Shown: piece after piece, positions 1 through 57,110 of the stretch
Layout of the letters: each line of letters begins with the position of its first letter
Numbering within the stretch: position 1 is the first letter of the stretch
Program-made: the position numbers and the translations under genes
The notes under the pieces: model-generated
What the model was told of the DNA's origin: nothing
The model's database searches: none
Seen by the model: only the letters and a program-made list of their open reading frames with translations
Assembly (NCBI GenBank): GCA_004335835.1
Contig: RWJK01001126.1
Span: 1-64,000 of the forward strand
DNA: 64,000 bases
Source of the DNA: Scenedesmus sp. ARA3
Taxonomy: Eukaryota; Chlorophyta; Chlorophyceae; Sphaeropleales; Scenedesmaceae
Reading direction: 5' to 3'

Positions 1-21
1 CCGGCACTGCCTGCTGGCCGG

Positions 22-63
<42 letters not shown>

Positions 64-2000: not shown

Positions 2001-2037
<37 letters not shown>

Positions 2038-2193
2038 GCCTGCATACCAGGGCAGCAGGCCTCGTCATCCAGCTGCAGCTCCAGCGCGCCTGACACGCCG
2101 CCATCCCCACACGTGGTGCCCTGCCCTGCTGACACGCCCGCTGACATGCCTGCTGACATGCCTGCTGATGCAGCCAGCACGTGCCCCTGCAGG

Positions 2194-2231
<38 letters not shown>

Positions 2232-2509
2232 CAAGGTGCCCGGCCCTGTGCTGGCTGGGGGTGAGGCGCTGGGCACGGAGTCCCTGCTGCCCTCCTGCTC
2301 CAGGATGGACTGCAGCGCAGGCCGCCACTGCAGCGGGCCGCCGCCATCCTGCAGCTGCTGCTGCAGCTGCTGCCTGGTGGGCGGCAGCGCGTGCTGCAGC
2401 TGCAGCTGCCGCGGCTGCAGCACACCCACGCCCGCATCACTGGTGCGGCGCGAGTGCTGCTGCTGCTGCTGCTCCTGTGGCTGCGGCTCACAGTGCCATC
2501 CTTGCTGCT

Positions 2510-2541
<32 letters not shown>

Positions 2542-2718
2542 GTAGCATCTGCAGCGTCTGCCGCCAGCCGCCGGCCCTGCGAGGCGCGTGTGGCACTGCC
2601 GCTGCCGCCGGCAATGACCTGGCACGCCTCACCACGCCCAGCACCATCACCACCTGCTGCTGCGCCACAGCCAGCCGTAGCAGCCAGCCTGTGCCGCTGC
2701 ATTGCAGCTGGCAATCCA

Positions 2719-2752
<34 letters not shown>

Positions 2753-4356: not shown

Positions 4357-4401
<45 letters not shown>

Positions 4402-17569: not shown

Positions 17570-18437
17570 GCGATCGCGCTAGCTTGTGCTGCAAGCTTCC
17601 TTCGGTGTGTTCTACAACTTCAACAGACTGAATCTCCGAGATGCTGTTTGGTTAATTAGAGCACCTGTCGGCAACTCAAGCAACACGTAAGCATGTAAAA
17701 GCCACATAAACAACCATGCAAGGGCTGTCAAGGCAACAACAGCAACGATCTTTCGTGTACAGGTCAGCCAGGAGGCTGGTGTCGACAGCGCTAGTCGGCA
17801 CGTATCTCGGGCGAAAAGAGTAGCTAAATTGATTTAGCTTGATTGTCATGTACGTACCTTGACATTCGCTCCCTTTCTCGCTTGTAACATGCTTGTAACA
17901 AGCACGAAGATCTCCCTGCTTCTCAGGCCCACAGCCAGACAATTAAGTCGTAAACGAAGTGGATCTCAACTTTAATTACGCATCGTCACGTCAGGCACTC
18001 AAAAGCTATTCATCGAGGGAACAGCAGGCGGGAGCACCTGCACATCGGCAGCTGTAAGCCTCGTCGTGTCGACTAATACCCCAAAAGGTCGTGTATTGTT
18101 ATTGAGTAATACCTGCGAGAGCTTTTGGCCTTCTGCACAACACCGTGGTGGCAGTGACACTGACTGCATTGCACTCGAAACGACGCCCCGGAAGATCCAT
18201 ACACACGCCTGACGTCCTTCAGGCACGTGAAACGCTGTACGCAATTGGCAGGGGGCCTGCATCGTGCCAGTGCGCACGGTGCAGCCCTGGGATCCTTGGA
18301 TGAGCAGGAGGCATGTACTCCACCCTGGTGAGTAAGCCAATTCACAAGGCAAGTTGAGATCCTTGGCTGTTCGGGTGTCTGTAGGCCACGAGTAAGCGAG
18401 ATGGGATGCTTGGGGCGTTGTTCAGCCAACACGGATT
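17570..18437. other. Divergent intergenic region between S1-like and GATA genes
   Basis: The two genes are transcribed away from each other across about 0.87 kb, which must hold both promoters and the 5' leader of the GATA gene. I see no clear TATA box or conserved motif. An open frame on the minus strand (18073-18495) has no recognisable sequence. Confidence 0.45.
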
Positions 18438-21400
18438 GTGTCCGCTGGTGTATGCCTAGCACGCGCCACACCTCGCTGTTGCTGGCATCCCACATCGACC
18501 ATGGTGCCGTTCCACACTGCGCTAGGGTTCAGCAGTGCCAACCAGAGCCTTGCAAACTCTATGTGTCTCACCAACATGCATAAACACTGCTGCAAGCCCC
18601 GCAGAGCGCTGACATCACACCTGCTCCTGCTGATCTTGCAGGGATCGCAACCCCAGCAGGCACCAGATGCCACTCAGATTGATAGGCATGCAGCAGCACA
18701 GCAGCATGAAAACCAGCCGCCAACACAAACAGAGGTCTCCACAGGCAGTGCATCGCTGGCGGCAGCATCGGGCCTGCTGGCAATTGCAGGCACAGCAGGC
18801 AAGTGCAAGCCAGGTCAGGTGCTGGGCTCCTCAGAGAGTGACGGCACACCACACCCAGAGCACAGCACACCCTCTGCAGGGCCGCCCTCGCCCCACATGC
18901 GCCGGCAGCAGCAGCAGCAGCAAGCGCAGCAGCCGGCTTACCAGCAGTACCAGCAGCAGCCTCTGATGCTCCTGCAGCAGCAGCAGATGCTGCTGCACCT
19001 GCAGGCAGCAGGCATGGGAGCCATGGCGCCAGGCACGTGCATGGTGCAGGGCCAACCGCTGATGAACACAACAGCGCAAGCAGCAAACACGGGGAACATA
19101 TTCTTCCCAGCAGCACAGCAGCAACAGCAGCAGCAGCCGGCCCAGCCGCAGATCATGGCGTACCCACTCATGGGCCCCCCAGGCCATGTGCACATGGGCA
19201 ACGGCACCCCAACAGCAGCAGCAGCAGATGCAGCTGGAGGCGCAGCTGCTGCTGCTGCAGCCTCTGGCAGCCTAGAAGCAGCAGCAGCAGGCAGCGGCAG
19301 CTTGGACGCCAACGGCGGCGCAGCTGCAGCAGGGGTCATCAAGTGTGAGGCTGACGCAGCAGCAGCAGCCGGCCAGGCTGGCCAGGCTGGCTGCAGGCGC
19401 AGCCTGGCGCTGCGGGGGCCGTGCTACCACTGCGGCACCACCATCAGCAGCCAGTGGCGCAGCGGGCCCCCTGACAAGCCGGTGCTGTGCAATGCGTGTG
19501 GGCTGTACTACCGCAAGGTGTCCAGCCTGCCTGACCACACCTGCCAGGTGGCCGGCGCGCTCTCGGTGAGTGCAGTGTGTGGGACCGGGGAAGGGGCTGC
19601 AAAGCAGAAGTAGCATTTGCAGTTGCAGTGCCTCAAGGTGGCGCAGTTGATGCTGCCTTGTGTGTGGCTGGCGTGCTGTGCAAGGAAACTGGCAGCGTGC
19701 GCAAGCATACCGTCACGGCCGTGTAGCAGTAGCAGCTGCTGCTATGTGCCTGCAGTTTCGAAGAACAACATCATCTGGCCCCTGCGGCACAACTTTGTCA
19801 GCCCGCTCATTGCTGTGTACTGCTGCTGCTGCCGTGCTGTGTGCTGCTCCCCTGCCAGGGCCCCTGCGGGCACTGCGGCGCCGAGGAGTCCCCTCAGTGG
19901 CGCAGCGGCCCCCCGGAGCACCCGGTGCTGTGCGACCCCTGCGGCCGCCACTTCCGCAAGACCAAGACCTTACCCAAGCGCAAGCGCCGCAGCCTGGCGC
20001 AGCACTTCTCTGGCTGCCACCACTGCGGCAGCCAGTTCAGCCCGCAGTGGCGCGGCGGGCCGCCAGACAAACCCACGCTGTGCAATGCATGCGGGCTGCA
20101 TTACCGCAAGACGAAAGGGCTGCCGGAGCGGCCGCCGCAGGCTGCGCAGACGCTGATGGACCTGAGCCGGGCAGCGGAGCAGCAGCAGGCTATGGATGAT
20201 GCTGCGAAGGGGCCGGGGTCCGGCACTGAGGGCGAGGCGGATGGCTCGCCAGCAGCAGCAGCAGCAGTGGAGTCTAAGCCAGGGCTGCCCAAGCCTGGCA
20301 AGCCACCGAAGAAGCAGCAGCAGCAGCAGGGCTCACAGGAGCGCAAGCAGCCGCGGCGGCAGGACTCGCGGCTGCGTAAGGAGCAGCAGCCCGAGGAGGT
20401 TGATGATGAGCAGCAGCAGATGCAGGACGAGCAGCAGGACGGCGACCTGCAGCAGCAGCAGGTGTTCTATGGCGGCATTGACGTCGCTGCCGCTGCTGCT
20501 GCCGCGGATGTTGGCGACGTCATGGTTGAGTGCAGCGTGGCGAGCAAGGCGCTGCAGCAGCAGCACTTGGAGTGGCAGGCCGACGGCTGTGCGCTGGACC
20601 CTGCAGCAGCTGCTGCAGCGCCTGTGCCAGCAATGCAGCATGATCCAGCCGCACTCGCACCCGGCAAGTCAGCTGCAGGCAACTTGGCGTCACCCGCCAT
20701 CGCCTCCAAGGCTACAGCAGCAGCAGCAGCAGGGGGTGGCAAAGGCTTGCTGGGTGACCACCATGCTGACCTGGACATGTTGTTAGGTGCTGCTGAGCTG
20801 GCGGCTGAGCTGACAGCAGATGACCTGGTGGGCTTCTCTGCACCCTTCAGTGAGCCGGCAGCGCCAGAGTCACCAGTGGATGAGCTGGCAGCAGCAGCAG
20901 CAGCAGCAGCAGCGGGCGGCGCGCGCAGCGGCAGTAGGCTGGGCATGCCTGGAGGGGACCCCAGTTGCGCTTGCAACGGTGACACAGGTAGGGGCCTGCC
21001 TGTATGTTTGTTTGTGTGCAGCTGCGTGTGTGCTTCAGCGATGGCCAGAGGTCCTGTGACAGCTGTGTCAGCTGCTGTCAGGGTAGACGTACAAGCTGCT
21101 GACTAACCCTGTGCTTCTTTGCTGCACCTGCTGCCTTGCATTTGCAGCTGAGTCGTCCTGCTCAGAGCCGCAGGGCTCAGGCACAGCAGCAGGCGCATCG
21201 CAGGGCGCAGCGCCAGCAGTGACGGGCGGCATTGCTGAGGGCATCCCAGTCATGCCGCAGTACCCCATGGCAGTACACGGCGCACACATGCAGCTGCTGC
21301 AGCAGCAGCAACAGCAGCAGCAGATGCCGGGCATGGCAGCAGCAGCAGCCGGCGGCTGTGCAGGCCCTGCCATGAGCTCTGCATCAGCAGTGCCCGGTGC

Positions 21401-38662: not shown

Positions 38663-39830
38663 TTATTTGCCAACGCCAAGCAGCCCCAGCACCTCACCCA
38701 CCCTCGCATGCACGCTGCTGCTCCTCACCACCTCATATGGCACACCCTGCTGATGCATCACCACTTCAAATGCCACCATTAGGTCAGCTGTCGGGGTGAT
38801 CATGCGCACACCATCATCAACAGGCCCGCACTGGCCCGCATCATAAGGCGGCAGCAGCAGCACCACGGAGGTTGCAGCGCCGCAGTTGGACAGCAGCTCC
38901 TGTGTCTCGGGCCGCGCCAGCAGCTGCTGCACCTACGGACAGCATCATCCAGCAACAGAAGACTGCGTTCATTAGGTTTTTGCTGTGGTGTGCTTGACCG
39001 TGCAAAAGACTGCACCATGCAGTACTTTTGTGGCTTGCAGCAGTAGCTTCTAGCCGGCTGATACCCTGGATTGTTTGCCTCCTTTCTGAACTAAGCTATT
39101 GTGATTGCTTCATCAGCACGCAATGAGCCAAAGAGAGCTGCAAACACGTCAGCATACAGGTGTTTTGACCACATCCGCTACACGCATCGCACCTCTGCAG
39201 ACTTGCTGCCCCAGCGCTCTGTCGCATATGCCAGCACATCAATGATGGCCCTGTCTGACAGAACAGGTTTGGCAGCAGCAGATGCAGCGCGCTCACGCTT
39301 CAACTGCTCAGCTGTGATGAGCTGCTGCAGCTGCAGGAACGCTGCGCTGCGCTCTGCCGCGATCAAAGGGTCGGCGGCGCTGCGGCTACACAGCATGAAC
39401 TGCTCACGCCTGATACCATGTGCAGCCATAACATGCCGCGCTGTCTCTGTGATAAGCATCCACTTGTAACCCACTGCTGTTGCTGCTGCCGTGCGTGTGG
39501 CTCCTGCCTGATTGTGCAGTGCTGCAGCCACAGCTGCAGCTGGCGTCTCGCTGCACATGCTGCCATCCTCTGGGCCAGCAGGCGCTGCAGCTGCTGTGCC
39601 ACCTCCAACAGCAGCTGGAGCCAGCGCCTGCAGCAGTGCATTGCACAGTGTGGTTTTGCCTGACCCGTGCGGGCCCACCACATACAGCTTGCGCAGCCCG
39701 CTGCTGCGCCTGCTGCCTCCTGCCAGTGGCACGCAGCTCACATGCAGCGGCAGCGGCTGAACCGGCTGCGCAGCCACCTGCCAGCGTGTCTGCATCTTGC
39801 TTAGCAGGCCTGACTGCGCCGTGCCTGCTG

Positions 39831-39864
<34 letters not shown>

Positions 39865-42837
39865 AGCAAACCTGCCCCACACCTGCTGCCCAATCCCTGC
39901 TGTTGCTGCTGCACTACTGGCTAGCAGCTGGGGCTTGCTGGTGTCCTGCCTGAAGCGCAGCGTGAGCAGCCAGCAGGCCAGCATCACCTTCATCTCCAGC
40001 CACCCAAGCTGCATGCCGACACAGCCCTTGCGGCCATGACCAAACGGCCTGAAGGCGTCGCTTGCATCGCTGCCACAGACAGCTGCTGACACTGCATGCT
40101 CTGCCACAGAGCGAGCTGCCATGGCGCTGGAACGGCTGTTGGCAGCAGGGCAGTGCTGTGAAGTTGCTGTCCCTGCTGCAGTCTGCGGGTAGCTGCCCGC
40201 AAAGTTGGCAGCTGGGTTGAAGCTGTGAGGGTCAGGGAAGACGGTGGGGTCTCTGTGCATGGTTGCTAAACTCACAATGACAGTGTCGCCTGGCTGCAGG
40301 TGCTCTTCTTTGCTGCTGCCTGCTGCTGTTTTGTAGCTGAGGGTCACTGCCTCTGTGGCTTGGCGGATGCTGACTGGCCCCACAGGCTTGAACCTGAGTG
40401 CCTCGCAGAGTGATGCTTGGCACTTGGGCAGCTGTGCGTCATCACCGGCGCTGATGGGCAGGGCTGCAGCGAGCTGCATGTCAGACAGCTGGTGGATGTC
40501 ACCTGTTGTGACCCGGGGAGGGGTGAGGGAGGGTAGTGCGGAGAGGGCAGCATGTGGTGAGCAAGGAGGTTGAAGTAACATGTACATGATACTGGCTGTT
40601 GTTGCTGTGCACGTTGCAGGCTGTCAGCTGCAGGGAATATAACGACCTTTCAGCAGCGCTGATTGTCTTGGCCGTTGGGGGGACTTTTTGTGACTGCTAT
40701 TGGCAGCAAAGCGGCTGCGCAGCGCAGGTCATAAGCAGCTGGTGCAGATGAGGCTCGCCTAGCCGGCCAGCTCACCTACTGCTGCCAGCACCTCTGCCAG
40801 CAGCTGCTGCTCCAGCTGCGGGTCATCTGACAGCTGCACCATCAGGTAGTACAGGCTGATGCTGCTGGTGTCTGTGCCTGCCAGCAGCATCTCAAGAGCC
40901 AGCTGCTGCACTGCCTGCTGACTCAACTTGCCGGCTACCTGGTCAGCCAGCAGCCGGCTGAGGAAGCAAGGCTCTGCTGGGCTAGATGCAGCAGCACCAG
41001 CCGCAGTGGCAGTGGCAGTGCATTGGGGATGCAGTTCATCTAGATTTGGCAGGCTGGTGCTGGTGTGCCGAGCTGCTGCCAGCATGATGAGGTGTGCCGT
41101 GGCATCCTGCAAGGCTTGCACTGCATCCAGATGCTTGCGGTGCTCTGCGGTGTGACTGGTGCGGCGGCAGAGCCAGTCAGGGCGCAGCAGGAAGTAGTCC
41201 CAAGCCTGCAGCAGCAGCAGCAGCAGCGGCAGCATGTGACAAGCGACAAAGACAGCTTGTGCCCTTCAGAATCCCTGCACTTTGCTGCTTGCCAGAGTGT
41301 TGCGCAACACCGCCAGGGCTGGATACTAGACATGCATGCTCAAGGAACTGCACTGACGACGACAGCAACCAACCATCCCTAGCCACCTGAAAAGGCATCA
41401 GGAACCTGCCAAGGCAGCATCGTGACAGTTATATAGAGAGCTTCTCCCACCTTAAAGTAGTCTGCCACCTGGTGCACCACCTTGAGCGCCTCATCCTTGC
41501 CCACTGCGTCAACAGGCAGCCCAAAGGCCAGCGCAGCCGTCACCCGGAAGGTGATGAGCCTCAGGAAATCCCTGCCATCAGGCAGCAGGTCCAGGCTAAG
41601 GCCTGACACCTTTGCTGCCAGCTCAGAGAGCGGCAAAGCTGCCAGCCCAGGAACTGGTGGCAGCTGGGCCGCAGTGGATGATGATGTGGGAGCGCTGGGG
41701 GGTGCTGCCGCTGCTGCTGCGCAGCAGTGCTCTGCCAATGTAAGTTTGAAGGCGGCGACCGTGGTCAGCTTGACATGATTGGCGTTCTTGACTGCAAGTG
41801 CTTGGATGCCTGCGCAACACAACAGCACAGTGGGCAGCACTTTTGTCAGTGACTGCGCGCGGTTTGCAACAAGTGACTAGTGCGCGGATTGCAGCACGTT
41901 TGTTTCTGCCTTTGTGGGGATGCATACCCTGGCTGCTGTTGTGTTGTGCAGAAGGCATATGCGCACTTGTGCGCTCCCTGCCACAGTCCCTACAAACTGC
42001 AAAACTGCAAGCAAGCCTCATGCTCAGCAGATAAGGTGGCCAACATTAAGCAGATGAGCCGCCAGTTGAGAGGCTCGTACCATCAGCAAAGTACTTCCGC
42101 TTCTCCTGCCAGCCTGTGGTGTTGTTGTTCCAGATGATGCCCTCCTCGTGCATGCCCAGCAGCTTGAGGCCGTGCTTTGAGCCCAGGCGGTTGACGAACG
42201 ACTTTGACTTGAACACCTGGGCAGCTACGTCATTCCTGTTGTGCAGCAGCAACGACGGCAGCAGCAGCACATGCACCAGAAGTGCTGGGTAAGTGGTGAG
42301 TAAGCAAGCGCAGCCCGTTACACATAAAAGGACATTGGTGTATCAATCTGATTGAACTGCACATGACAAAACAGCAGCTCCTTACACATTCTCAGTGGCA
42401 CGTCTGACAGCACTTTTCAAGGATGTTTGTGCAGCGCACTCGCTGCAGCAGGGCCCAACTTGCAGCCTGCAGTGTCTGAGCAAGAACCCTTGTTGCTTAT
42501 CCTGTGGAAGCGAAATTCGTGTGTACCTGCCGACAAAAGTGATCTTCCCCCAGTGCAGGCACTGCATGGTGACAACTTTGTTTGGAGATGCTTCCAGCAG
42601 CTGCGCAGACAAGTCTGCGGGGCCGCTGCTGTGCAGGCGCCACGAGCACCACAGTTGCCTGGCGGGGCGGAAGAGCAGTACCATGAACAACAAGATAACA
42701 GCGACTGCAACCAGCAATAGCAGCGTCGCGGTCAGTTCAGAAGCCAGTGCCGGAAACAGCTTATCTGTTTTTGCACCACTGGTGAGTGTTGACGGGTGCA
42801 GATGCTGGAAGCACAGCTGGGACGCATTGGTGGTCAT
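38663..42837 (-). CDS. Cytochrome P450 fused to a C-terminal AAA_28/Ttd14-NadR-like P-loop NTPase
   Basis: Six exons: 42527-42837, 42081-42235, 41451-41809, 40776-41205, 39193-40502 and 38663-38932. They total 2,835 nt (944 residues) with all phases consistent. Residues ~35-60 are a membrane anchor (LTATLLLLVAVAVILLFMVL). P450 landmarks are I-helix AGTDTS (384-389), K-helix E452-A-L-R455 and FPDPHSFNP. The heme loop is FRPFGHGRKGCVG with Cys579 as the axial ligand. The same uninterrupted exon continues through a Ser/Ala/Gln linker. It then enters a second domain with P-loop GPHGSGKT (695-702), SDRAIIDVLAYA and, in the last exon, VVLLLPPYD followed by DDGVR. These fit the AAA_28 family (Ttd14/NadR-like kinases). 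Predicted: an ER-bound monooxygenase with an attached nucleotide-binding module; substrate unknown. The fusion is seen directly, because both domains share exon 39193-40502. Confidence 0.85.
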
Positions 42838-43116: not shown

Positions 43117-43268
43117 ATGCAGTTCAGGTTGCTGACACCTGGTGGCAGCCAACAAAGTCACCAGCATGGGCACAATGGCAACTTGATGCGTGTACGGATA
43201 ATGCAGCAACAAACTCACCAGCTTAAAGTCAGTGGCACGGTGGCAGCGGTGCGCAGCGGTCAGGGCCA

Positions 43269-43305
<37 letters not shown>

Positions 43306-45486
43306 CCTGCTGATGCGCATGTCATCAAAGCACAGGCACTTGGGCTGCTGAAAATACAACTGCCTGAAGAAGCTACCCGCAGGTGGCCAGCAATTGTCAT
43401 TGCTGGTGGACTGCGCTGCAGCAGCATCACAGTGGTGAATAGCAACACTCTGCAGCTGGACATAGTCAAGAATGCAGAGGGCAGCGGCAGCGGCGCTGGT
43501 GACCAGATAGCCATCCAAGTCATGGCGCAGCAGCCACTGCAGAAACAGTCCAGCCGGCTGCGGCTGCTGCATGGGCAGCAAAACTTCCTCACCATCAACT
43601 TCAGCCAGCTCTACCATGACAGCTGGGAGCAGGCCCGAGAGGCACATCAGTACATCAAGCAGGTGAGGCGCAGGTGCCAGCGGCAAGAACCTTTCAGGAG
43701 TAGTTATTTGTAGATGTGGCTGAAGGTGGCTCTGGTGTGCCAACTGGTTTGTGTGTTGTCTGGAGCTGTATGCCAGGGTAAGCGTTGCCAACTCACAGCC
43801 AGGCATGCAACCAAGTTGGCCTGGCGATTTGACGATCCACTAAGCCACGTGCACGTCTATGCAAATGCAAACAGAACAACTGCCACCTGATGCGCAGGTG
43901 CTTTCTCAAGGCGTCATCATCAATGGGGAGCACTACTACTTTGTAGGGTCCAGCGCGGGGCAGCTGCGAGAGCACGTGGCGGTGCTGTACCGCTGCAGCT
44001 CACCAGAGCAGGCCTGGCAGCTGCTGCTCAGCTGGGGAGACTTTGGCAGCATTGGGTCGGCTGCCAAGATGTACAAGCGCATCGGCCTGATGTTCTCAGG
44101 TGCACTGGCAGCCTGCACCGCGGTGTCAGTGCACACGGCCATGGTGTTAACCAAGGGCTGCAGTCGGCTTACCATCCTATCTCAGCAGCCAGGCGTGATG
44201 GTTACGCTCTGCTTGCATAAATATGTACAACATTCACCAGCACGACCACGCTTGTCTCAAAGGAAACGCCACACCAACTTTCAGGCTTGTCACTAGCCGC
44301 ACCTGCCTCCTGACATCTACTGTGCTATGTTGCTCTTTATGTGCTCCTTATGTGCTGCTTATGGCCTCTTTGTATGCTTGTCTGCAGGTGTGAGTCCGAT
44401 CAGCCTGACAACAACTGAGCGCAGCAACAGCAGCAGCAGCAACAACGGCAGCGGCGGGCAGCCCACCATCAAGGCAGTGGAGGTGGGGGACATTGAGGCT
44501 GGCGGCTTCACCTTCACTGATGGCTGCGGCATCATCAGCCAGCGCTGCGCGCGGCGCGTCATGGCCAGCAGAGGCAAGATCACCCTGCACGGCAATAACT
44601 ACCTGCCAAGCGTGTACCAGGTGATGAGCTGCGCTGCTGCTGCTGCTGCTGCTGTGGCTGCTGTGGCATATGACATCCTCACACGGTCAATCGACAGACC
44701 ATGGCGCGGCATATGCGTTGCTGCATCCACTGGCTGCAGTTGACTGGTTAGCTGATCTAATGCTGATGAGTGTAGCATGATGTTCGTGGTCATACAGGCA
44801 GTGTTGCTGGAGACCTGCTACAGCTAAGCCTGTCTCCAGGGATGCGTAGTCGCATTCTGCTCATGTTGTTCAAAGTGCTCAGGGCACAGCTGTGTTCAAT
44901 GCCACCTTAACTGCTGAACGTATGCTGCACATTGGCCACCGCTGCCATGCAGATCCGCTACAAAGGCTACAAGGGAGTTGTGCACATTGACACACCAGAT
45001 GGCGCCTACATGGCTGCAGCAGCAACTGCAGCAGGCATGGACCCCGCCACTGTTGCTGACTGCGACCTGCTGCTGCGCAAATCCATGAGCAAGGTTGGGG
45101 GCGTTTCTGACGCAACGCTAGGCCTTGTGGCCGTCAGCCTGCCCTACAAGGTTGGGTTCCTGAACCAGCAGTTTGTGCTGCTGCTGTCAGCGCTGGGCGC
45201 GCCTGATGATGTGCTGCTGCAGCAGCAGGCAGAGTACTTCCGCGAGCTTGACGGCCTGTGCAGCGATGCGTCAGTGGCAACACGTTACCTGCTGATGGAC
45301 GAGAAGGTGAGTGCAGGTGGCTTATCTGCTGTGCAAGCAGCTCCTGGCTGGAAGCAACAAAGTTGCCGCACATCTGCTGCCGACAGCTTCGGCTGCTGCA
45401 GCTAGCACTGCCAGTGCAACTCAAGGGGCTATGCGCTCATGTTGTGCATGTATGAGCAGGAAAATGTAAAGATGTTCCCGCAGGTG

Positions 45487-45529
<43 letters not shown>

Positions 45530-48500
45530 TTCCATACAAGTGATGCATTGGCTGCTCCTGCTGCTGCTGCTGCTGCTGCTCCTATTGTTGCTGCTGCCGA
45601 ATGTCTGTGCATCTTTTGTGCAGTACAAGCAAGCAGAGGCGGTGGCCTGCCTGCCTGATGACTCCAGCCTGCCGCCTGCCGTCATGAGCCACATGCAGCG
45701 CATCTACAGCAGGGAGGTGAGGGCATGCGTTAAAAGCAAGCCAAAACGCGCGAGGCTAGCTGCTGCAGTGGCAGCCGAGTCAGCCGTTGCTCCCAGGCTG
45801 GACGTACCAGGAACCCCAGCACAGCAGCAGAGCGCTTCTAGCCGCAGCAGCAATGCGCGGAACAGCAGCAAAGCCAGCATGGCAGTCAGCGCGCCAAGCA
45901 GCAGCGGTACGGGCATCAGCCGTGCAGTCACTGCACCAAGCAGCAGCAGCAGCAGCAGCAACACAGGCATCAGACGGACAGGCAGCGAGCCATGCAGCAG
46001 CAGCAAGACAGCCCCATCTCCAGCTGACACAGATGACTTGGAGTTGCAGCAGCAGTTGTCGCAGCTACCTGATGTGAGGCTGCGCTTTAGGGTCCCACAG
46101 TCCCGTCTGGCTTTCGGCATACCTGACCCAACCGGGCTGCTGGAATATGGCCAGGCCTTCTTTCAGCCAACAATGGACGGGGCTGCAACAGCTCTGCAAG
46201 GCTTTGCCCTTGTGGTGAGAACTTGGCTGCACAGCACTGCAGCGCACTGCCAGGCATGTTGTCAAGCAATGCCACAAGTTGGCTTCTCTTCGCGGTATTC
46301 ACAGCACATGCACCCTGCTGCTTGCAGTCAAGTTGTCGCGGCAGTTTCAGCCACTGTAGCCTGCATCCAGGCCTGCAGCAAACAGTAACAACACCACCAA
46401 CGCATGTTGTCTCGTCTCTGTTGCTGCAGGCGCGCAGCCCCTCCTACTTCCCTGGAGACTTGCGGGTGCTGCAGCTGCTGGATGTGCCTCAGCTGCGGCA
46501 GCTGCAGGATGTGCTGGTGCTGCCCGTGCAGGGGCCCCGCCCCCATGCCGACGAGTGCTCCGGAGGTGCGCGCAGTGGTGATGATTGCACAAGTCAGGCC
46601 TGCTTGTCAAATTTTAGTTGTACGTTGGACGTGGGTCCTTGTGAGTGCATACTTACGCAGCAGGCATAGCTGCTAGCATTACAAGCCCTGCTGTCAGGCC
46701 ACCTGCTGCTAAAAGTTCAATTTGCATCACATTGCATGCTCACATCCTGAAGTGGGAACATCAATAAAAAGCTATAGTATTTGTAAAGATCCTCGTTACG
46801 TCTTCCCACAAGGCCAAAGATTGCAGCTCTGTGCCTCATTTCTTGCCATCTTCAAGTGGTGTGCGCTGACATGCAGGAGGCGAAACACCACCACGCGCGA
46901 GACACAAGCGCTGCTACACACTCACCTCCTGTGTGTGGCGCTGCTCGCTGCATCTGCGCAGGCGACTACGATGGCGACCAGTTTTTTGTCTGCTGGGACG
47001 AGCGCCTCATCCCCTCCAAGCACCAGCTGCAGCGGCCGCTGGATTACTCAGCAGATGCAGACCCTGCAGCGCCTGCAGCTGCTGCTGTGGACCACCAGGC
47101 CCTCATCGAGTACTTTGCTCAGTATGACCCCTTCATTCTTGGGCGCCTGAACTCGTGAGTGCCTTGCGTTCTTCTGGTGCATCTTTCTTTCCCTGCACCA
47201 ATGATGGCTTCAGCAGACTGCCATTTTGCCGATTGGGCCTTGGTAACAGCTGAGTTGTAGCCTCTGCACCTGATCCCGCCTGTGCTGCTGTCTGCCTGCA
47301 GCTGCTACATGGCCTGGGCAGAGCTGAAAGGTCCCAGCTGCCCTGAGTGTGTCGAGCTGGCAAGGCTGTTCTCAAGGGGTGTGGACTCAGTCAAGTCGGG
47401 CGCTAAGACCGTTATTCCACCGTGGCTCAAACTGCCCAAACCTGCAGCTGCAGCGGCAGCAGCACCAGCAGCACAAGCAGCAGCTACTGCTGCAGCAGTA
47501 ACAGTGCCAAATGTCAGCAGCAGCAGCAGCAGCAGCAGCAGGAGCAGTGCAGCACAGCCTGCATCCATCTGGCTGCAGCTGAAAGAGCGCGCCTCAAGCT
47601 TTGTACGAGCATCGTATCAGCGTTGCCTGTCCGGCAGCAGTAGAAGCAGCAGCGGTGTGTCTGCCATCACCTGCGGGCTGTCTTTCGAAGACATGATGGA
47701 CCTGCTTGACAGCAGGGATGTGGGTGCCACGGAGTTTGACCTGCTGCGGCTGGCTGTCAGCTGGCAGCAGCAGCATGGCGCGTCTGCTGGCGTGGCGCTG
47801 CTGCAACTGGTTGACAACATCGACTTTGCAACGCTGACACCAGAGCAGGTGGGCTGGCAGTATGGTTGGCTGGCAGTAGTGGCGTCATGCACTGGATTCT
47901 AAGCAGGCATGGTTGGCACAGCTAACCGGAAAAGGGTGCTGGTGATGGGTTGCGGCTGCTAGGCAAGACGTACAGTGATCAGTGCCTATTATGTTGCGAC
48001 AAGCTGGAAATGTGCAGAGGTAATTGTGACACATAGATCCAGTCACGCCTTATACTGGATGACTCGGTGCCATGTGTGTGCCTGCAGTGTGAGTATGCCG
48101 TTGCTGCTGGCGTGCCGCATGAGCTGGTGTTCAACGACCTGGTGCGCAGCCAGCTGCTGTCAGGCCACCAGGTCAGCCAGCTGGGAGACGTTGGGCAGCT
48201 GCGCTGGAGGCTGTTTGATGCAGGTGGGCGCTTGCTTATCCATCGGCGGTCTAGCTGCTGTATGCTGAATCTAGTTTGGATGTTGAGCAGCTGCTTTTGT
48301 GGCTGTGCCGTGTGCCATCAGCCAGCAAGTTTACTTGATCATGCAGCAGCTGTATGGCCTGCAAAAGCATGCACAGCTCGCGCTAATCTCCTGCTGTGTT
48401 ATGTAATGCCCGCCTGCAGGCGCTGTGACGAGCGAGCGCAGCTGGCAGCAGCTTTACACTGCTGCCACAAAGTTCACCAAAAAGCTGCTGCTGCTGCAAT

Positions 48501-49899
48501 GTCACGATCCACCTCAGACCATCGCGCTGTACCTGCCGCACCAGTACCCAGGTCAGCCAACGCTATGCTTACCAGAAAGCGTTCACTGCAGATTTGCAGC
48601 TGTATCAGAAGAGTCAGCCAGCATGGAGCTCAAGACATGTTTTGCGCTGCATCAAGGCATTAGCTGCAAATGAAGTGCTTGCTTGTCGGCCCGTGCCTCA
48701 ATTGCAGCCTAAACACTCTGCCCACCAGGCATGGGGTGACTTGATGCATCAGCAGCTGTTGCAGGCAGACGACGTCAGCTGGCAAGACTGGCTGCAGCAC
48801 AGAACAGCGTAACAATCTGTGTGACTGCCCAGCTCCTGCGCCCTTGTTTGTTGTGGCCTCTGCATGACGCTGCTGCTGGCAGGTGATGGTGTTTATCCTT
48901 GTGCTACGCACCGATCTGACGGCCAGCAGCTATCAGCCATCACATGGGCCTTTGGCGTGGATGGCTTCACCAGGAAGCAGTTCCTATCAGGCCAGAATAT
49001 AGACCTTGACAGCAGTGAGCAGCGGCTGCAGATCTACAGGCCACGCAGGCTGCAGCCTGGGCAGGCCCCTGCATTAGATGACCCCAGCAGCAGAGCCAAT
49101 TCATACCTCTGGCTGCGGCTGGTCAGGTCCCCTGTGATGACAGCACGCATGCAGCAGCAGCAGCAGCAGCAGTCTCTGCTGCCAAACCAGAGGAGCAGTC
49201 AGACACAGCAGCAGCAACAGCAGCAGCAGCATAAGCGATCACATAAAGGTGTCTCTTCGCTGCATGCACATCAGTCACTGCACCATGGTCAGCAAGGTAG
49301 GCAGATCTCCCAGCAACAGCAGCAGCAGCAGCAGCAGGAATGGCCTTAGCAACGGCAGCAGGAGCAGCAGCAGAAGCAGTGCTAGCTCTCTGCATCTGAA
49401 CCAGCTGCAGCTCAGTGTAGATGTGCTCAGGTTTGAGCCCACCAAGTCCTTCACACACTACAGCAAGACCACCAAAATCCCAGTCAGCCGCTACGAGCTT
49501 TATGCGGTCAGCTGTGAGCAGTTGCAGCTGCCTTCCCTGGAGCTGCCAGGCACCTGGGAGTCTTTCTATGCTTCACCCACTGGCAGCAGCAGCAGCACAG
49601 CCAGAAGCAGCTGCTGCTTGGTATCAGCTGGTAGGCAGCTGAGCGAGGAGCAGTTAGCTGAGGCAGATCGGCTGCTGCAGCTGCTGCCTGGTGCCTGCAG
49701 CATGATTACACCAGCGGTTGATGCTGCAGTGCAATCAGATGCAGCAGCTAGAGGTCCAAAGCCGGTTGTCAATGCTGCTGTACAGGCTTGGCCTCGCAGC
49801 CCGCTTGGAAGGGGCAAGCCATCACCTGCGGTGGCATCAGCAAATGGTCATGTACACCTGATGCTGGGCGCTAGCCGTACAGCAGCTGCCACTGGGTGT

Positions 49900-49948
<49 letters not shown>

Positions 49949-50566
49949 TCAAGCAGCAACGGCCGCCTCTGTCAACAGCCGAGGCAGCGCGTGCTGTGCA
50001 CAAGCTGCTGCTCTCCTGGGCTGACGGTGACCTGCTGGACGCAGCCGTGGCTCTCTGTGCTGCTGTGAGTTGGCGGCCGTGCACAGTTTGCAGCCAGTGT
50101 GGGCAATGCTAGTTTCATGTTTGATGCTTGTTGGTGACCGACCCTCGTAGCAGCCTTTCATGAAGCTGGGCTGTTTGGCAGATGCTACACCAGGATGTGA
50201 AGTTTACGTGAGCTTCGCAAGATGACTGCATGCATCAGCGGTCCCGATGCTGGGCACATGCTGCAGCACCCTGCACTTCATGCATGCCTGCCAGCTGGAT
50301 GCATTGGCTGCCAGCAACCGCCATCACTGCTCTGCTGCACATCAACACATGTGCAACTTGTCACCATGTTTTTGCGGGTACTATTGTGATGTTGCACGCA
50401 GGTCTGTGGCTGCAGCGATGTGCGTGCAGCAGCAGCAATGCGGCAGCAGTGGCCCTGCACCTGGGCAGCACTGTTCACATGCGCAGCCCGGCTGCATGAT
50501 CAAGGTGCTGCCAACAGGCTGACGCACCTCCTGCTACTGCATCATCATCATCACCATCATCACCAT

Positions 50567-50610
<44 letters not shown>

Positions 50611-53600
50611 CACATCGAGCATCTGCATGAGTGCCGCTGCAGTTGTAACTGAAGCAGTGCGCATTTGCAGCATCACTGGCATCCTGCGCTGCTGTCCTGG
50701 CGTGGTGCTCACCGTGTGGGCATATCTGCTGCAGCAGCAGCAGCAGCAGCCGCTGCCACAGCAGCAGCAGCATGCCGAACAGGGTGCTGCAGATGTGCTC
50801 AGCAGCTGCACAGATGGAGTGCTGCTTGAGCTGGTGCTGGCTGTGATGAGGAGCGCTGGCAGCGCCCCTGAGCTTGCAGGTGAGGCACCCAGTGCTCCAG
50901 CAGGTGCATTCAGCACAGTCGTGCATTCCAATACAACTGAATCTATTGCACAGCATGGCTATCCTTTAAGCATGGCAATTGAACCCACCTGTGCGCCGTG
51001 CACTGCTGGCATGCTTGCTGCAGGCCCCGTTCTGCGGCACCTGCTGGCTAGCCCCTCCTTTGTGTGGTCTCCCGCAAGGGTGGCAGAGCTCATGCAGGCA
51101 GTTGTAACACAGTGTCCCAACAGAGAGCAAGCCGAATGTGTACTGCTCCCTTGCATTGCGGCTGCAGCAGCAGCAGCAGCAGCAGCAGCACAAGCAAGAG
51201 ACAATGTGGTTGCTGCTGCACAGCAGCAGCACACTGCAGCACTGACAGGGACCCCTGCAGCAAGCAGCTACCAGCTACAATTCAGCCATGCACTAACAGT
51301 GGAAATGATGCAGAAGCTGCACAGCAGCTCAACCTCTGCGGCAGATCAACCAGCAACAGCTGGCTTGCACAGCAGCAGCAGCAGCAGCACGGTGCTGCTG
51401 TCTGACCATATATCAGCTGCAGCTGGCAGGCAGGGCATGCAGCCACTAGCGCGGCAGCTGTCGCAGGGTGGGGGCAGGCTTGGTGGGCCGACAGCTGGCG
51501 GCCAAGGCAGTAGATGCAGCGGCATCTTCAATGCCAGGGCTGTGCAGGTCTCCGCTGCCGTCAGCGCCACAGCAGGAGCAGGAGCAGGCGCAGCAGCAGC
51601 AGCAGCAGCTGAAGGAGAAGAAGAGAGAAAGGAAGAAGCAGAAGAAGCGGCAGGAAAAGAAGAAAAAACAAAACAGTTCTGCAGCAGCGAGGAAGCTGCT
51701 GACGCTGCTGTTGAGGTGAAGTTGCAGCTGCATCTGCCTTGCACTGTAACATTCAGCGTGGACGGTGCAGCATCGCAGCTGCAGGTGGGAGACCTGGTGA
51801 GGTTGGCCAGCCAGGCAGCCGATGCAACACAGCTGCTTGACAGCAGGTTCAGCGTGGAAGGTATCGTGGTGCAGCTGGACAGGGGATCAAGCATGGAAGG
51901 TGTGGTGGTTGAGCTGCCATGGCAGCCCGTGGGCCTCACAGATCAGCCGTGGCAGCTGCACTGCCTGGGCAACCTGACGACATACAAGCGCTGCCTTGAG
52001 GGGCTGGCTGCACTGGCTGCGGGGGGCAGTACTTATGCAGCTGCCGTTGGGGCAGCAAGCGCAGCACCTGACCGTGTTCTGCAGCACATCATCACGGCAA
52101 GCTGGCAGTGGCAGCAAGACAGAGGGTGCATGTCTGTTGGTGAAGCAGATGCTGATGCATTAGTGCAGCAGCTGAAGGCATCTGGCGAGCAGGCTGTTGG
52201 GCAAGATGTGGTGCAGTGTGGAGTGAGCGATGCACAGCTGCAGGCGGTGTCAGGTGGGGCGCTGAACGCAGCGCAGGAGGCTGCGGTCAAAGCAGCAGCA
52301 GAGCAGCGGCTGACGCTGATATGGGGCCCTCCAGGAACTGGGAAGGTGGGTCGAGGATCCCTCACAGCTGTATCGGGTGATGCTGAAGCCTGCAGTGGGG
52401 TGTCCATCCTTACAGGCGTCTGCACTGGAGCCTGTAGCCTGCACCGTGAGCTTGCCTGCCTTGGACACCAGCACACCAGGGACTGCAGCGAAATCTGCAT
52501 ACCAAACATGTGCCCTGTGAGTCCTCTATTCAAACAATAATCAAACCGCAGGCAAACGTGCACACACCAGGGATTTCATGACGCGCGGGAAAACTTGTGC
52601 TGCTGCCCGTTGCATGCAGACGCACACCATTGTGCAGCTGCTGCGCGTCATGCTCTGTCAACAGCAGGAAGGCACCCGCAGCAGCCACCCCATCCTGGTG
52701 TGTACTGAGACGCACACAGCGACCGACAACATACTTTCCAAGCTGATTGCATCCAGCAAAACTGCTGGGGCTGCTGCTGCTGCTGCTGGAGGGGAGGCCA
52801 GGCACAGAGCGGCAGGGCTGAGGGTTGAAAAAGAAGAGCTGCTGCGCATCGGGGATGTGGGGAGGGTGACTCCAGAGCTGAGGAGGTACCGTGTGGCAGA
52901 ATATGCACGTTGCCACAACTTACTTTGCATTTTTGGCCTGGGCTCAAGGTCTGCAAGTCTGTTATCTATAACACTCTGGTTTAGAGATGCATTTAAACTC
53001 AGCTGTCATTTGAGGGCAGCTACTTCATGTAAAATGGCGTTACAGTAGTGGGCTGACACGTTTTCAAAATGCACATACTGCGAGTTTCAACTCATCATCA
53101 TCATGCACTTTTGTGGTGCTGCATGTAAGCATCGACTTCCTGATGTCTGTAACATGCCTAATACGGCTGATCATGCGTTGTGGCCAGTACTTTGGCACTC
53201 CGAGACTCCCGCAAGCTACGGCAGGGACGTTGCTTTATATGATGTGTGCTGCCCGCTGCTATTTCATTGCCTGCTGCAGCTGCACGCTTTACGCCCTTGG
53301 TGATAAGCTGACCAACGCAGCTGGCTTCCTGGACATGAAGAAAGTGCGAGCTGAGCTGGCCAGCAAGCGCGTGGTGTTCGCTACTTGCGCTGCTGCTGGC
53401 GCCAGCATCCTGCAGGCAGCAGGCGTCCAGTTCAACACTGTCATTGTGGATGAGGCAACGCAGGTGAGGGTCATCTCATGTTGCAGACGTTCAACCCAAT
53501 GCATCGGCTGCGACACAGAAGCACCAAAGTGGACACTGTTGTGCCATGCCACAGTGTTTGGTGCGGGAACCGCCTACCCTTGTGCATGCAGCAGGATGGA

Positions 53601-55458
53601 TGCAGTGTGCATGGCGGCAGCTGGGAGCATGCCGTATGCAACATATTTTGTGTGCACTCTGACGCTGTCACGACCAACCCCAAAGTGCCCACACTGTGTG
53701 CTGAGCACGTGTGCCTGATTCTGTTGCTGCTTCTGCACGAATATGGCTGTGCGGCAACCTGCCACCTGCAGGTGCTGGAGCCCTGCTGCCTGCTGCCGGT
53801 GCTCCTGGGGCCGGCGCAGCAGCTGGTGCTGGTGGGCGACCACAAGCAACTGGGTCCCTGCGTCAGCGCAGCAACTGAGGGATATGGCTTGAAGGTGAGG
53901 GTGATTCCTCCATGCAAGCAGCATGTGGTGTCCATTTCTGGCATGCAGTGGAGGGAAACTGCGAGTGACAAGCAGTGTTCTCTTAAACCAACTGTTGGAC
54001 TTCAACTCACTTGCTTGAAACGCTATACCCAGACCACACATCACAGCCGTCGCCAAGAAGGAGCAGTAATATGCGCCCTGCTGGCTGCTGTTGTATGCTA
54101 GCAGCGTGTGCTGCTGTAGTTGCACCGTGCCTGTTGAAAGCGCACCCTCTGGCAGTCACGCCTGTGCAGCATTGTGTGCCCTTCACCCTTAGAGGCTCGC
54201 GCACTTGCTGTCTGTACGCGCAGGAGTCATTGTTTGAGCGGCTGCTGGCGTGTGGGGCTGCAGAGCCGCACATGCTGACCACGCAGTACCGCATGCACCC
54301 AGGCATAGCAGCACTGCCCTCAGACTGCTTCTATGGGGGACTGCTGGACACCCACTACAGTAACCAGGTGAGACATGCTGGAAGAGTGTTTCTCAGTTTC
54401 CCGGCACAAGCTTGACACTGTCAATTGCACCTGAACCTGAAAATCAGATCAACATTGGCTGCAGCATCAAAAGGTATCACCTGTGTTGTGCATGTGCCAC
54501 TCTTGCTGTACTGTACAGTCCTGCCCCACACTGGGGCCCTGCCTGCAGCCCGGCATCTCCCTCGTCGATGTCGAGGGCAGGGAAACCGCAGCAGGCTCCA
54601 GCTGGCTCAACAGAGACGAAGCTCAGGCTGTGGCACGAATCCTGCGACAGCTGCTGAGCCCAAAAGGCGATGGCAGCGGCAGCAGCAGCAGCAGTGTACT
54701 GGTGGCCAGAGGCATTGGCATCATCACACCCTACAAAGCCATGGTGCAGGAGTTGTGCAGCGTGATGGCTCGGGTGCCAGGTGCAGGGGAGGTGGAGGTC
54801 AACACAGTGGAAGCATTCCAGGTGCTTCTAGAGCATGTGCATACACTCTGGATGGGACCAATCAATCACCAAAACATTCAATGATGGACATGGTAGCTGC
54901 AACACATGCCGTGTCATTGTTGTGCTGCGTGTGAACCAGCGGGTCATGCCATACCATGGCCGGTCTGTCGACCAGCTGGATCAGCCTGCGGCGGCATTGC
55001 AGCTTGCATCAGCTTGCCTTGCGCAGCCATAACACAAGAACAGGTGCATTATCCTGAAGTGCGCAGTTGCACTGCATGTCAGAAGTTCAAATGGTCAGCA
55101 TGGTGCATTACACATGTAGGGTGACACATGAACAGCAAGATCCATTTGGACCCGTGACAGTATGCCACATGCATACTCATCTATACCTGCATGCATTGGG
55201 CGCTTGCTGCTGCCACCGACGCTGCCGATCTTGCCACTGCAGGGGCGTGAGAAGGACGTTGTCATCTTCTGCTCTGTGCGCTGCAACAGTGGCGGCAGGC
55301 TGGGCTTTGTCGCTGATGCGCGGCGCCTCAATGTGGCCGTCACGCGCGCCAGACATGCGCTGGTGCTGGTCGGCAGCCGCAGGACGCTGGCTGCGGATGA
55401 GCTCTGGGCGCAGTGGGTGTGCAACACCAGCTGCAGGGACCTGAGGCTGGAGAGCTAG
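43117..55458 (+). CDS. RNA-dependent RNA polymerase fused to a UPF1-like SF1 RNA helicase
   Basis: Nineteen exons: 43117-43662, 43898-44099, 44388-44620, 44953-45306, 45624-46214, 46430-46565, 46962-47154, 47302-47848, 48088-48223, 48420-48551, 48883-49133, 49411-50064, 50402-52345, 52620-52885, 53280-53463, 53772-53894, 54224-54367, 54519-54821 and 55243-55458. They total 7,155 nt (2,384 residues); every junction keeps phase. The N-terminal half is a cellular RdRP: GVIINGEHYYFVGSSAGQLR, SLPYKVGFLNQQFVLLLSAL, LLEYGQAFFQPTM and catalytic GDYDGDQFFVCWDERLI (DYDGD at 689-693). The C-terminal half is an SF1 helicase: GPPGTGK-T (1967-1974), DEATQ (2119-2123), VGDHKQLGP, TTQYRMHP, GREKDVVIF and NVAVTRARHALVLVG. 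The halves are joined by a phase-0 intron and a His/Gln linker. Predicted role: double-stranded RNA synthesis and unwinding in RNA silencing. The start, intron 49134-49410 and acceptor 54519 (alternative 54549) are least sure. Two adjacent genes remain possible. Confidence 0.78.
49907..49948 (+). repeat. CAG microsatellite coding poly-Gln, ~14 units
   Basis: An in-frame CAG run in exon 49411-50064 of the RdRP-helicase gene, near the junction between the polymerase and helicase halves. Confidence 0.9.
50402..55458 (+). other. Helicase half of the RdRP-helicase gene
   Basis: This part is listed separately because it could be a gene of its own. Its first exon (50402-52345) opens in phase 0 directly from an acceptor. 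It begins with ordinary sequence and a His9/Gln14 run. An Ala/Glu/Lys block follows near 51600-51680, then a beta-rich segment (LHLPCTVTFSVDGAASQLQV) like the domain before the first RecA fold of UPF1-type helicases. No convincing own start codon or promoter was seen between 50065 and 50401. Confidence 0.6.
50538..50609 (+). repeat. His/Gln-coding repeat at the polymerase-helicase junction
   Basis: CAT/CAC codons for nine His are followed by about fourteen CAG codons for Gln, all in frame in exon 50402-52345. It looks like a flexible, length-variable linker. Confidence 0.85.
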
Positions 55459-57110
55459 CACGCTGGCCTGCTTTACTTGATACACTGTTTGGTTGGGACG
55501 TCAGCAGGTGGTTGCTGCCACTATTCAGCGCTCATCACCGGGTGTGCAGTAACGGTAGTGGAGCATGTGGGCACACGGGCGAGATGCTTGGCAGACCCAT
55601 GAATGGGCCGGATATTTCGACACGGGTAACGCTGTATGCTTTCGAGGTGTTGCAATTTAAAGCAGTGCACTTCACTTTGACAGTGCCAGGCAGGCAGCGT
55701 ACGCTACATTGCTTTACGCAGTACTGCTGCACGCATGCGCGCTGCATGATAAGCAGCAACTGTCTGAACACATTTCGGCATCAACAGCGGCTTACAGTAC
55801 ACCACGAGGGTGCATACATGACAGCCTTCTACCATCAACTTTAGTATCAACTTCAATGTCAGAGACACTCATGAAGCACATAACCAATGCAGGCCCGGCT
55901 CCCAGCATGTCAGGCAGCACATGCCGTAAGGGCCTGCAGGCAATGCACCTGCACAGCAACAGCCGCGTCTGCGTCTGCCGCATCAGCTGCAGCAGCATGC
56001 TTTGCTAGAGTTCCGTTGTTGACGTCACATACGTGCTGGTGGTGCAGCCTGCGGCCGCGAGGCCTTGCCCCGGGGCACTACACTGTACCACATGTCACCA
56101 CACAACCCCTCTGTACCACATGTCACCACACAACCCCTCTGTACCACATGTCACCACACAACCCCTCTGTACCACATGTCACCACACAACCCCTCTGTAC
56201 CGCTGCGGTGGAGGGTGAGGTGCATGAGCAGCACACACGGCCAACCAGGCGACGCACTGAAGTAAGCAGCAGCGGTGGGCAGGCCCGAAGGCTCTGCCGC
56301 ACGAAAAGCTTACATGTACAAATGTACACAAGGATGATGACCACAAGGCTGATCAATAAACCCTACCCATCATCAACGGCATCCCGCAAACACACGTGCT
56401 GCAAGCAACCAACAAGCCCTGACCCTGCTGTCAACATATACCGATACTTGAACAGGGTGCAGCAGCACAGATGCACAGAGCACTGAACACACAACACACT
56501 GCAGATCAGGTAACACAGCAATACTGGCAAGCCGCGCTGATTGCATCTACCTAGCACTACGCTAAATGCATCTGCCTGACGCAGCGTAGCCCTGACCGGC
56601 ATACCCCCCAACCACCGCGCGGTTTGCAGTCTTGAAGCACCACAATGTGACAAACCAGTGACGTCGCAGTTAGTAGCAAATGTGACTACAAGGTTTTCCA
56701 CAACAACGCTGTGCACTGCAAACCCCATTTCCTGAAAAGCGGCACATCTGGCACTTCAACAGGCGTGCTACTGTACTTGTCACGAACTGGCGGCAAGCCT
56801 GCTTGTATATCCACATGCGCAGCAACAGCACGGCAAGCCCACACCTGCTGAAGTGCAGCAGTAACCTACACCCCCTTCATTTATCAATCGAGTGCCAAGG
56901 GCAATGGCCCAAACAGCACGCGCCCACCTTCCCATACCCATCTCTCATACTGGCACTACACACGTCCACCACATGTGACCACACTCATGCATACAGGTTG
57001 CTGCACTCGCAAGCCCCAGCCGCCCAGCAAGCTCCCTGAAAGACATAACCCACTCATCACGCAGTGGACCGCGTCAACCAGCACGCCAACTCACTTCCTC
57101 ATACGACACA
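55459..57110. other. Convergent intergenic region
   Basis: The RdRP-helicase and PAO-like genes end toward each other here. Apart from a 28-bp tandem repeat at 56088-56199, I see no gene or structured element. Confidence 0.5.
56088..56199. repeat. 28-bp tandem repeat, four copies
   Basis: Four head-to-tail copies of a 28-bp unit starting CCACATGTCACCACACAACC, without spacers and essentially identical. It lies between two convergent gene ends. The absence of unique spacers rules out a CRISPR array. Confidence 0.95.

What the first reader, a model, noticed from the sequence alone, without database searches (positions are those of the whole stretch)
43117..55458. RNA-dependent RNA polymerase fused to a UPF1-like helicase in one gene
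Seen: a complete cellular RdRP core (DYDGD at 689-693) and a complete SF1 helicase motif set (GPPGTGKT, DEATQ, GDHKQLGP, QYRMHP, NVAVTRARHALVLVG) on the same strand. No stop separates them. A canonical phase-0 intron (50065-50401) joins them, and a His/Gln linker sits at the junction. Known: RdRPs and SDE3/UPF1-type helicases cooperate in RNA silencing but are normally separate proteins, and helicase-RdRP fusions described elsewhere use other helicase types. As far as I recall, model chlorophytes such as Chlamydomonas lack a canonical RdRP. Inference: a self-contained double-stranded-RNA amplification enzyme.
Basis: partly seen in the sequence, partly recalled or inferred. Interest (0 to 1): 0.9.

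Follow-up and report, generated by a model that had tools for sequence, protein, structure and literature searches.

The report
RNA-copying enzyme fused to helicase
A green alga carries one large gene that joins an enzyme copying RNA into double-stranded RNA with an RNA-unwinding motor; the join looks real and is conserved in related algae, but the same kind of fusion was already described in a fungus, so it is an interesting new member of a known kind.

Summary
A 19-exon + strand model (43117-55458, 2417 aa) carries a cellular RdRP (PF05183, 9.1e-98; DYDGD at 689-693) and a complete UPF1-type SF1 helicase (AAA_11, AAA_12), joined by an ordinary 337-bp phase-0 intron. The fusion is conserved: all five hits of the first protein search, from Volvox, Gonium, Pleodorina and Chlamydomonas schloesseri, are predicted proteins with both halves in this order, one of them partial. 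A Trichoderma protein has it too. Between the halves lies a domain without a Pfam match, shared by these algae, Trebouxia, Cymbomonas and Trichoderma (hhalign 1e-21) but not by four other RdRPs tested. The genome also holds an unfused RdRP, Piwi loci on three contigs and a Dicer-like locus. Most likely it makes double-stranded RNA for silencing, with the helicase clearing or selecting templates.

No transcript was available, homology does not cross the joining intron, and the RdRP tree is unresolved. New member of a known kind.

The parts
43117..46214 (+). Exons 1-5: N-terminal part and first half of RdRP domain (residues 1-642), exons 43117-43662, 43898-44099, 44388-44620, 44953-45306, 45624-46214
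46430..47154 (+). Exons 6-7: RdRP catalytic part; G/GDYDGD split by intron 46566-46961; DYDGD at residues 689-693
47302..50064 (+). Exons 8-12: end of RdRP domain and a conserved middle domain (about residues 860-1200), then a polyQ-rich linker; junction 49127-49274 uncertain
50065..50401 (+). Intron joining the RdRP side to the helicase side; phase 0, 337 bp, GTGAGT...GCAG
50402..52345 (+). Exon 13: linker block (residues about 1375-1485 match the algal relatives, weakly), His/Gln tract, segment before the helicase core (1826-1903), helicase motif I GPPGTGK
52620..55458 (+). Exons 14-19: rest of UPF1-type SF1 helicase, stop TAG at 55456-55458; exons 52620-52885, 53280-53463, 53772-53894, 54224-54367, 54549-54821, 55243-55458

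Best explanation
One gene encodes one large protein: cellular RNA-dependent RNA polymerase, then a conserved middle domain, a partly low-complexity linker, and a UPF1-type superfamily 1 helicase. It most likely makes double-stranded RNA from selected transcripts (transposon or aberrant RNA) for Dicer, with the tethered helicase stripping proteins and structure from the template or freeing product strands so that copying can repeat. It would thus put in one chain what fission yeast does with Rdp1 plus Hrr1. Shown here: the gene model, the domains, the intact motifs and the conservation of the domain order in other predicted proteins. Inferred: single transcript in this alga, catalytic activity, role in silencing, division of labour between the halves.
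For: Domains and motifs. Closest solved structures: plant RDR2 for the RdRP half (7w84, 7.9e-41), UPF1 for the helicase (2xzo, 2.5e-56). Conserved fusion: 5 of 5 hits; P0009. Middle domain shared with the 5 algal fusion proteins, Trebouxia and Cymbomonas and Trichoderma. Segment before the helicase core shared with the algal fusion proteins. Silencing genes in the same genome: Piwi matches on three contigs, a Dicer-like locus on C1098 with RNase III and Dicer_dimer matches about 4 kb apart on one strand. [quoted passage not shown]
Against: No transcript. The tail of exon 12 (residues 1337-1368) shows no detectable similarity to the algal linker (1011 of 2000 shuffles score as high), so homology is shown on both sides of the joining intron but not across it. 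The match just after the intron is itself weak: 15.4 bits for the best stretch while the whole-sequence score is negative (-14.9, bias 86), and 9 of 2000 shuffles reach it. The RdRP tree does not group the window with the other algal fusions: it sits, with support 41, beside the canonical fungal RdRPs, although no grouping tested is rejected by the AU test. The relatives are gene predictions; the C. schloesseri one carries a cytochrome P450 at its start, which suggests that such models can be over-merged. Trebouxia and Cymbomonas carry the middle domain without a helicase in their models. By recall, UPF1 moves 5'-3' on its strand while an RdRP reads its template 3'-5', so a simple 'helicase ahead of polymerase' picture does not work.
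Confidence: 0.75

Rival explanations
1. Two adjacent genes, RdRP then helicase, merged by gene prediction in all these genomes.
For: No transcript; exon-12 tail not conserved; the first ATG of exon 13 (residue 1381) lies only 12 codons after the acceptor, so a separate helicase start there would keep most of the matching block; C. schloesseri model doubtfully includes a P450; Trebouxia and Cymbomonas RdRP models end without a helicase.
Against: Same order in five algal proteins (one partial) and one fungus; the middle domain on the RdRP side shared by all of them and the segment before the helicase core shared by window and the five algal proteins; ordinary phase-0 intron; FgRdRp5 annotated with the same order in another fungal genome (PMC4515635, passages).
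Confidence: 0.08
2. The fused enzyme is an RNA quality-control or rRNA/mRNA decay factor whose RdRP half is secondary, not a siRNA amplifier.
For: Helicase core is closest to UPF1 and NAM7 among solved structures; the FgRdRp5 authors discuss NMD and rRNA processing (passages of PMC11237814).
Against: RdRP motif intact in the window and in all five algal fusion proteins; FgRdRp5 shares in exonic siRNA biogenesis (abstract); Piwi and Dicer-like loci present in the genome.
Confidence: 0.12
3. The gene is decaying or unexpressed.
For: Low-complexity runs throughout; one uncertain junction at 49127-49274.
Against: The searched motifs of both halves are intact and all 18 modelled introns are GT-AG.
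Confidence: 0.05

Closest known systems
Fusarium graminearum FgRdRp5 (FGSG_09076)
   Same: RdRP followed by a C-terminal helicase and an AAA domain PF13087; on a separate branch and called closer to plant RdRp-like protein (passages of PMC4515635 and PMC11237814). Trichoderma ceciliae P0009, of the same fungal order by recall, matches over RdRP, middle domain and helicase.
   Different: The alga has long polyQ/polyA linkers and many introns.
Fusion proteins of Volvox, Gonium, Pleodorina and Chlamydomonas schloesseri (P0001-P0005, hypothetical proteins)
   Same: Same order, same middle domain, same segment before the helicase core
   Different: DLDGD instead of DYDGD; 31-49 % identical in the aligned segments; no description of the fusion seen in print (listings).
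Dictyostelium, peronosporomycete, Hydra and Nematostella RdRPs with DEAD-box helicase (passages of PMC4791657)
   Same: RdRP and helicase in one chain
   Different: DEAD-box (superfamily 2) helicase at the N-terminus, not superfamily 1 at the C-terminus
Fission yeast RDRC (Rdp1, Hrr1, Cid12) and nematode ZNFX-1 with RdRP (passages of PMC9276528; names partly recalled)
   Same: RdRP working with an SF1 helicase
   Different: Separate proteins; ZNFX1 is only a weaker match to this helicase (9q9z 6.8e-27 against UPF1 2.5e-56)

Membership tests
Cellular RdRP (PF05183) | Pfam profile above cut-off and DxDGD motif | tested here: met
   328.9 bits against 23.8; DYDGD 689-693
UPF1-like SF1 helicase core | AAA_11 plus AAA_12 and the SF1 motifs GPPGTGK, DEATQ, GDHKQLGP, QYRMHP, VAVTRAR | tested here: met
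UPF1 itself | N-terminal CH zinc domain (recalled) | tested here: not met
   No CH-domain family among the 16 Pfam families listed at E up to 1
FgRdRp5-type RdRP with C-terminal SF1 helicase | RdRP first, PF13087 last, one predicted chain | tested here: met
   and PMC11237814 passages
FgRdRp5-type RdRP with C-terminal SF1 helicase | Sequence homology over the middle domain | tested here: inconclusive
   Met against Trichoderma ceciliae P0009 (hhalign 99.4 %, 1e-21); FgRdRp5 itself not available
Dictyostelium/oomycete-type helicase-RdRP | N-terminal DEAD-box helicase with Helicase_C | tested here: not met
   No Helicase_C listed, DEAD only at E 0.036 under its cut-off, helicase C-terminal
One transcript, one polypeptide | cDNA across 50065-50401 | not testable with these tools
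   no transcript collection

The most novel reading that the evidence does not exclude
A separate, old lineage of eukaryotic RdRP, defined by an unnamed middle domain and in several members a C-terminal UPF1-type helicase, survives in green algae and in some fungi (by ancient inheritance with losses, or by transfer between an alga and a fungus). It works as a one-chain version of the RdRP-helicase complex of fission yeast, beside a second, unfused RdRP in the same alga. The RdRP tree neither shows nor rejects a clade of all carriers of the middle domain (AU p 0.605).
Probability: 0.4. Interest if true: 0.65.

Novelty: new member of a known kind. Interest (0 to 1): 0.45.

Why it matters
RdRP-driven amplification of silencing in chlorophyte algae appears little studied, as far as my searches and recall go. 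A conserved RdRP-helicase gene in several algae, in a genome with a second, unfused RdRP, gives a direct target for testing it. The shared, unnamed middle domain ties the algal and fungal fusions together and raises a concrete question of origin. A natural fusion also hints at which helicase type partners the polymerase.

Tried and rejected
Homology across the joining intron: the tail of exon 12 gave nothing. Poly(A) signal TGTAA: uninformative. Common neighbour: the P450 merged into the C. schloesseri model finds no significant match in the window (best tblastn E 0.28, none at the window's P450 at 39178-40623). RdRP tree of 26 sequences (window plus 25 of the 43 proteins listed by the searches): the five algal fusion proteins are separated from everything else with UFBoot 100 (inner branches 94-100), and the canonical fungal RdRPs with three environmental sequences form a clade with UFBoot 100 that excludes the Trichoderma fusion; but the window itself falls beside that fungal clade, with support 41, not with the other fusions. 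Approximately unbiased tests reject none of four alternatives: window plus the five (p 0.206), these plus Trebouxia and Cymbomonas (0.464), window plus the five plus Trichoderma (0.34), all nine carriers of the middle domain (0.605); bootstrap proportion and ELW put the first outside their 95 % sets. So no claim of transfer or of a single fusion event. Helicase core scores do not tell fusion relatives from UPF1 (192.7-215.5 bits against 194.8). A profile of the segment before the helicase core did not find the window when run on whole proteins, probably because of its low-complexity runs, and was redone on the segment without the composition correction. AlphaFold model of the Trebouxia protein is only fair (mean pLDDT 56); Foldseek finds plant RDR2 and QDE-1 and nothing convincing for the middle domain. 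Linker against Trichoderma: not significant (0.024). One search found only 2 of the 5 algal fusions, so the searches miss relatives and their counts are lower bounds.
Full report
Observation. The + strand of 43117-55458 was rebuilt exon by exon. Pfam gives RdRP 9.1e-98, AAA_12 1.1e-47 and AAA_11 6.9e-39 on the spliced protein. The joining intron 50065-50401 looks like the other 17 of the model: 337 bp (others 147-421), GTGAGT donor, GCAG acceptor, phase 0. Two junctions, 49127-49274 and 52886-53279, are my best choice and not proven.

Is the fusion real? A search with the full-length protein, scored on residues 200-1250, returned 5 proteins; only the 7980 candidates sharing most words were scored. 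All five are single predicted proteins with PF05183 and AAA_11, four also with AAA_12; the fifth, from Volvox africanus, is marked partial and ends 134 residues after the start of motif I. They come from Volvox reticuliferus, Gonium pectorale, Pleodorina starrii, Chlamydomonas schloesseri and Volvox africanus. A search scored on residues 591-799 returned 17 proteins from 1942 candidates: three had the same helicase families (P0002, P0004 and Trichoderma ceciliae P0009), one had a DEAD-type helicase (P0041), and 13 listed PF05183 alone or with PF26253; it missed three of the five proteins, so it undercounts. A search with residues 150-1313, which by its length limits cannot see proteins above about 2037 aa, returned 35 proteins from 3451 candidates, of which one (P0009) had helicase families; the closest, Cymbomonas (54 %) and Trebouxia (52 %), are RdRP-only models. 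The Cymbomonas model lacks part of the RdRP core, so at least that one is incomplete.

What lies between the halves? Residues 801-1200 match all five algal fusion proteins (91-117 bits), Cymbomonas (87) and Trebouxia (68) by phmmer; Trichoderma was missed by phmmer and found by BLAST at 2e-4 with composition correction off. A profile of the domain from eight algal sequences matches Trichoderma P0009 597-960 with hhalign probability 99.4 % and E 1e-21; the reversed sequence gives 0.5, and stretches after the core of four other RdRPs (P0019, P0014, P0010, P0041) give 0.17-0.81. No Pfam family in the lists covers it (in Trebouxia one match under its cut-off, E 0.051, touches it). In the AlphaFold model of the Trebouxia protein it is helical (about 731-800, pLDDT 72-77) and then mainly strands (851-930, 65-80), with a dip to about 30 between, in a model of mean 56. 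The segment before the helicase core (1826-1903) matches the five algal proteins (0 of 2000 shuffles reach it; hhalign 96.7 %, 3.9e-10), though not in a whole-protein search. A block in the first part of exon 13 (1375-1485) matches the algal linker weakly (15.4 bits for the stretch, whole-sequence score negative; 9 of 2000 shuffles). The last 32 residues of exon 12 do not match (1011 of 2000).

Relatives. The RdRP half is nearest plant RDR2 among solved structures by sequence, and the Trebouxia model by fold. The helicase core is nearest UPF1, then NAM7, SEN1, SMUBP2, DNA2 and ZNFX1 among named families, with an entry called 5'-3' RNA helicase-like protein (8ftm and others) between NAM7 and SEN1; UPF1's CH domain is absent from the Pfam list. 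In a tree of 26 RdRP cores the canonical fungal RdRPs, with three environmental sequences, form a clade (UFBoot 100) without the Trichoderma fusion. The window falls beside that clade with support 41, not with the other algal fusions; AU tests reject neither window plus the five (0.206) nor a clade of all nine carriers of the middle domain (0.605). The tree therefore does not tell whether the fusion arose once.

Own genome (87.3 Mb, 1567 contigs). Ten RdRP matches fall on C803 (the window, four), C989 (five) and C512 (one, weak). C989 holds an apparently unfused RdRP: among twelve queries it matches P0010, P0041 and Closterium P0042 best, and the window protein not at all at 1e-4. Its catalytic motif reads SGSDL/DGD across an apparent intron, and none of the helicase motifs looked for occurs in the unspliced reading of the 18 kb fetched. 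None of 36 AAA_12 matches lies on C989 or C512. The C512 place gave no tblastn match and was not resolved. The middle domain is found only in the window (4 of 4 matches on C803). Piwi matches lie on C731, C168 and C1327, PAZ on C731 and C1327. RNase III matches lie on C1098 and C1481, Dicer_dimer on C1188 and C1098; the two on C1098 are about 4 kb apart on the same strand. So silencing machinery appears to be present.

Literature. Passages read: V. carteri has one RdRP, one Dicer and two Argonautes, and the word helicase does not occur in the main text (PMC5093975; its supplement was not seen); Coccomyxa has an RdRP (PMC3446292); RDR-like homologs in Chlorophyta (PMC7994812). Passages of PMC4791657, a survey of 90 RDR homologs in 38 species, report DEAD-box fusions at the N-terminus and name no other kind. 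PMC4515635 (passages) and PMC11237814 (abstract and passages) describe FgRdRp5 with a C-terminal helicase and AAA domain, nearer to plant RdRp-like protein, and a role in exonic siRNAs and ascospore discharge. I saw no description of the algal fusion in the listings of searches, of which only the papers named in this report were opened; subscription papers are largely missing from the library.

Mechanism. Shown: gene model, domains, intact motifs, conservation of the order. Inferred: it copies RNA into double strands for Dicer. By recall UPF1 moves 5'-3' and the RdRP reads 3'-5', so the helicase more likely strips or selects the template, or peels the product strand so the template can be copied again, than runs ahead of the polymerase.

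Verdict. A very likely genuine, conserved fusion, the algal counterpart of FgRdRp5 in domain order, of moderate interest because of the shared middle domain, the two RdRP types in one alga and the untested biology.

Noticed in passing
P0041 (eukprot m51a1_g5837, 2647 aa): Dicer-type helicase (161-617), RdRP (1040-1587) and a nucleotidyltransferase match (1764-1804, 9.4e-5) in one predicted protein, resembling all three activities of the fission yeast RDRC in one chain, though with another helicase type.
   Followed up: partly
P0010 (environmental, 1221 aa): RdRP followed by a Zc3h12a-like NYN ribonuclease domain at 1065-1213.
   Followed up: partly
P0004 (Chlamydomonas schloesseri): The predicted fusion protein starts with a cytochrome P450 (PF00067) and lacks the first part of the RdRP; probably a merged or misassembled gene model.
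   Followed up: partly
39178-40623 (-): Open frame with cytochrome P450 C-terminal matches followed by a P-loop AAA_28 match in one frame.
   Followed up: no
18396-21106 (+): GATA zinc fingers in two neighbouring open frames, one or two genes.
   Followed up: no
56083-56201: 28-bp tandem repeat, 4.2 copies, 100 % matches, downstream of the gene.
   Followed up: no
G000 C989:59908-63152 (-): Second, apparently unfused RdRP of the same genome, closer to Closterium, amoeba and environmental RdRPs than to the window's.
   Followed up: yes
3-5528 (-): Open frame of 1842 aa, Gln/Ala-rich, running off the window, no Pfam match at 0.001.
   Followed up: no
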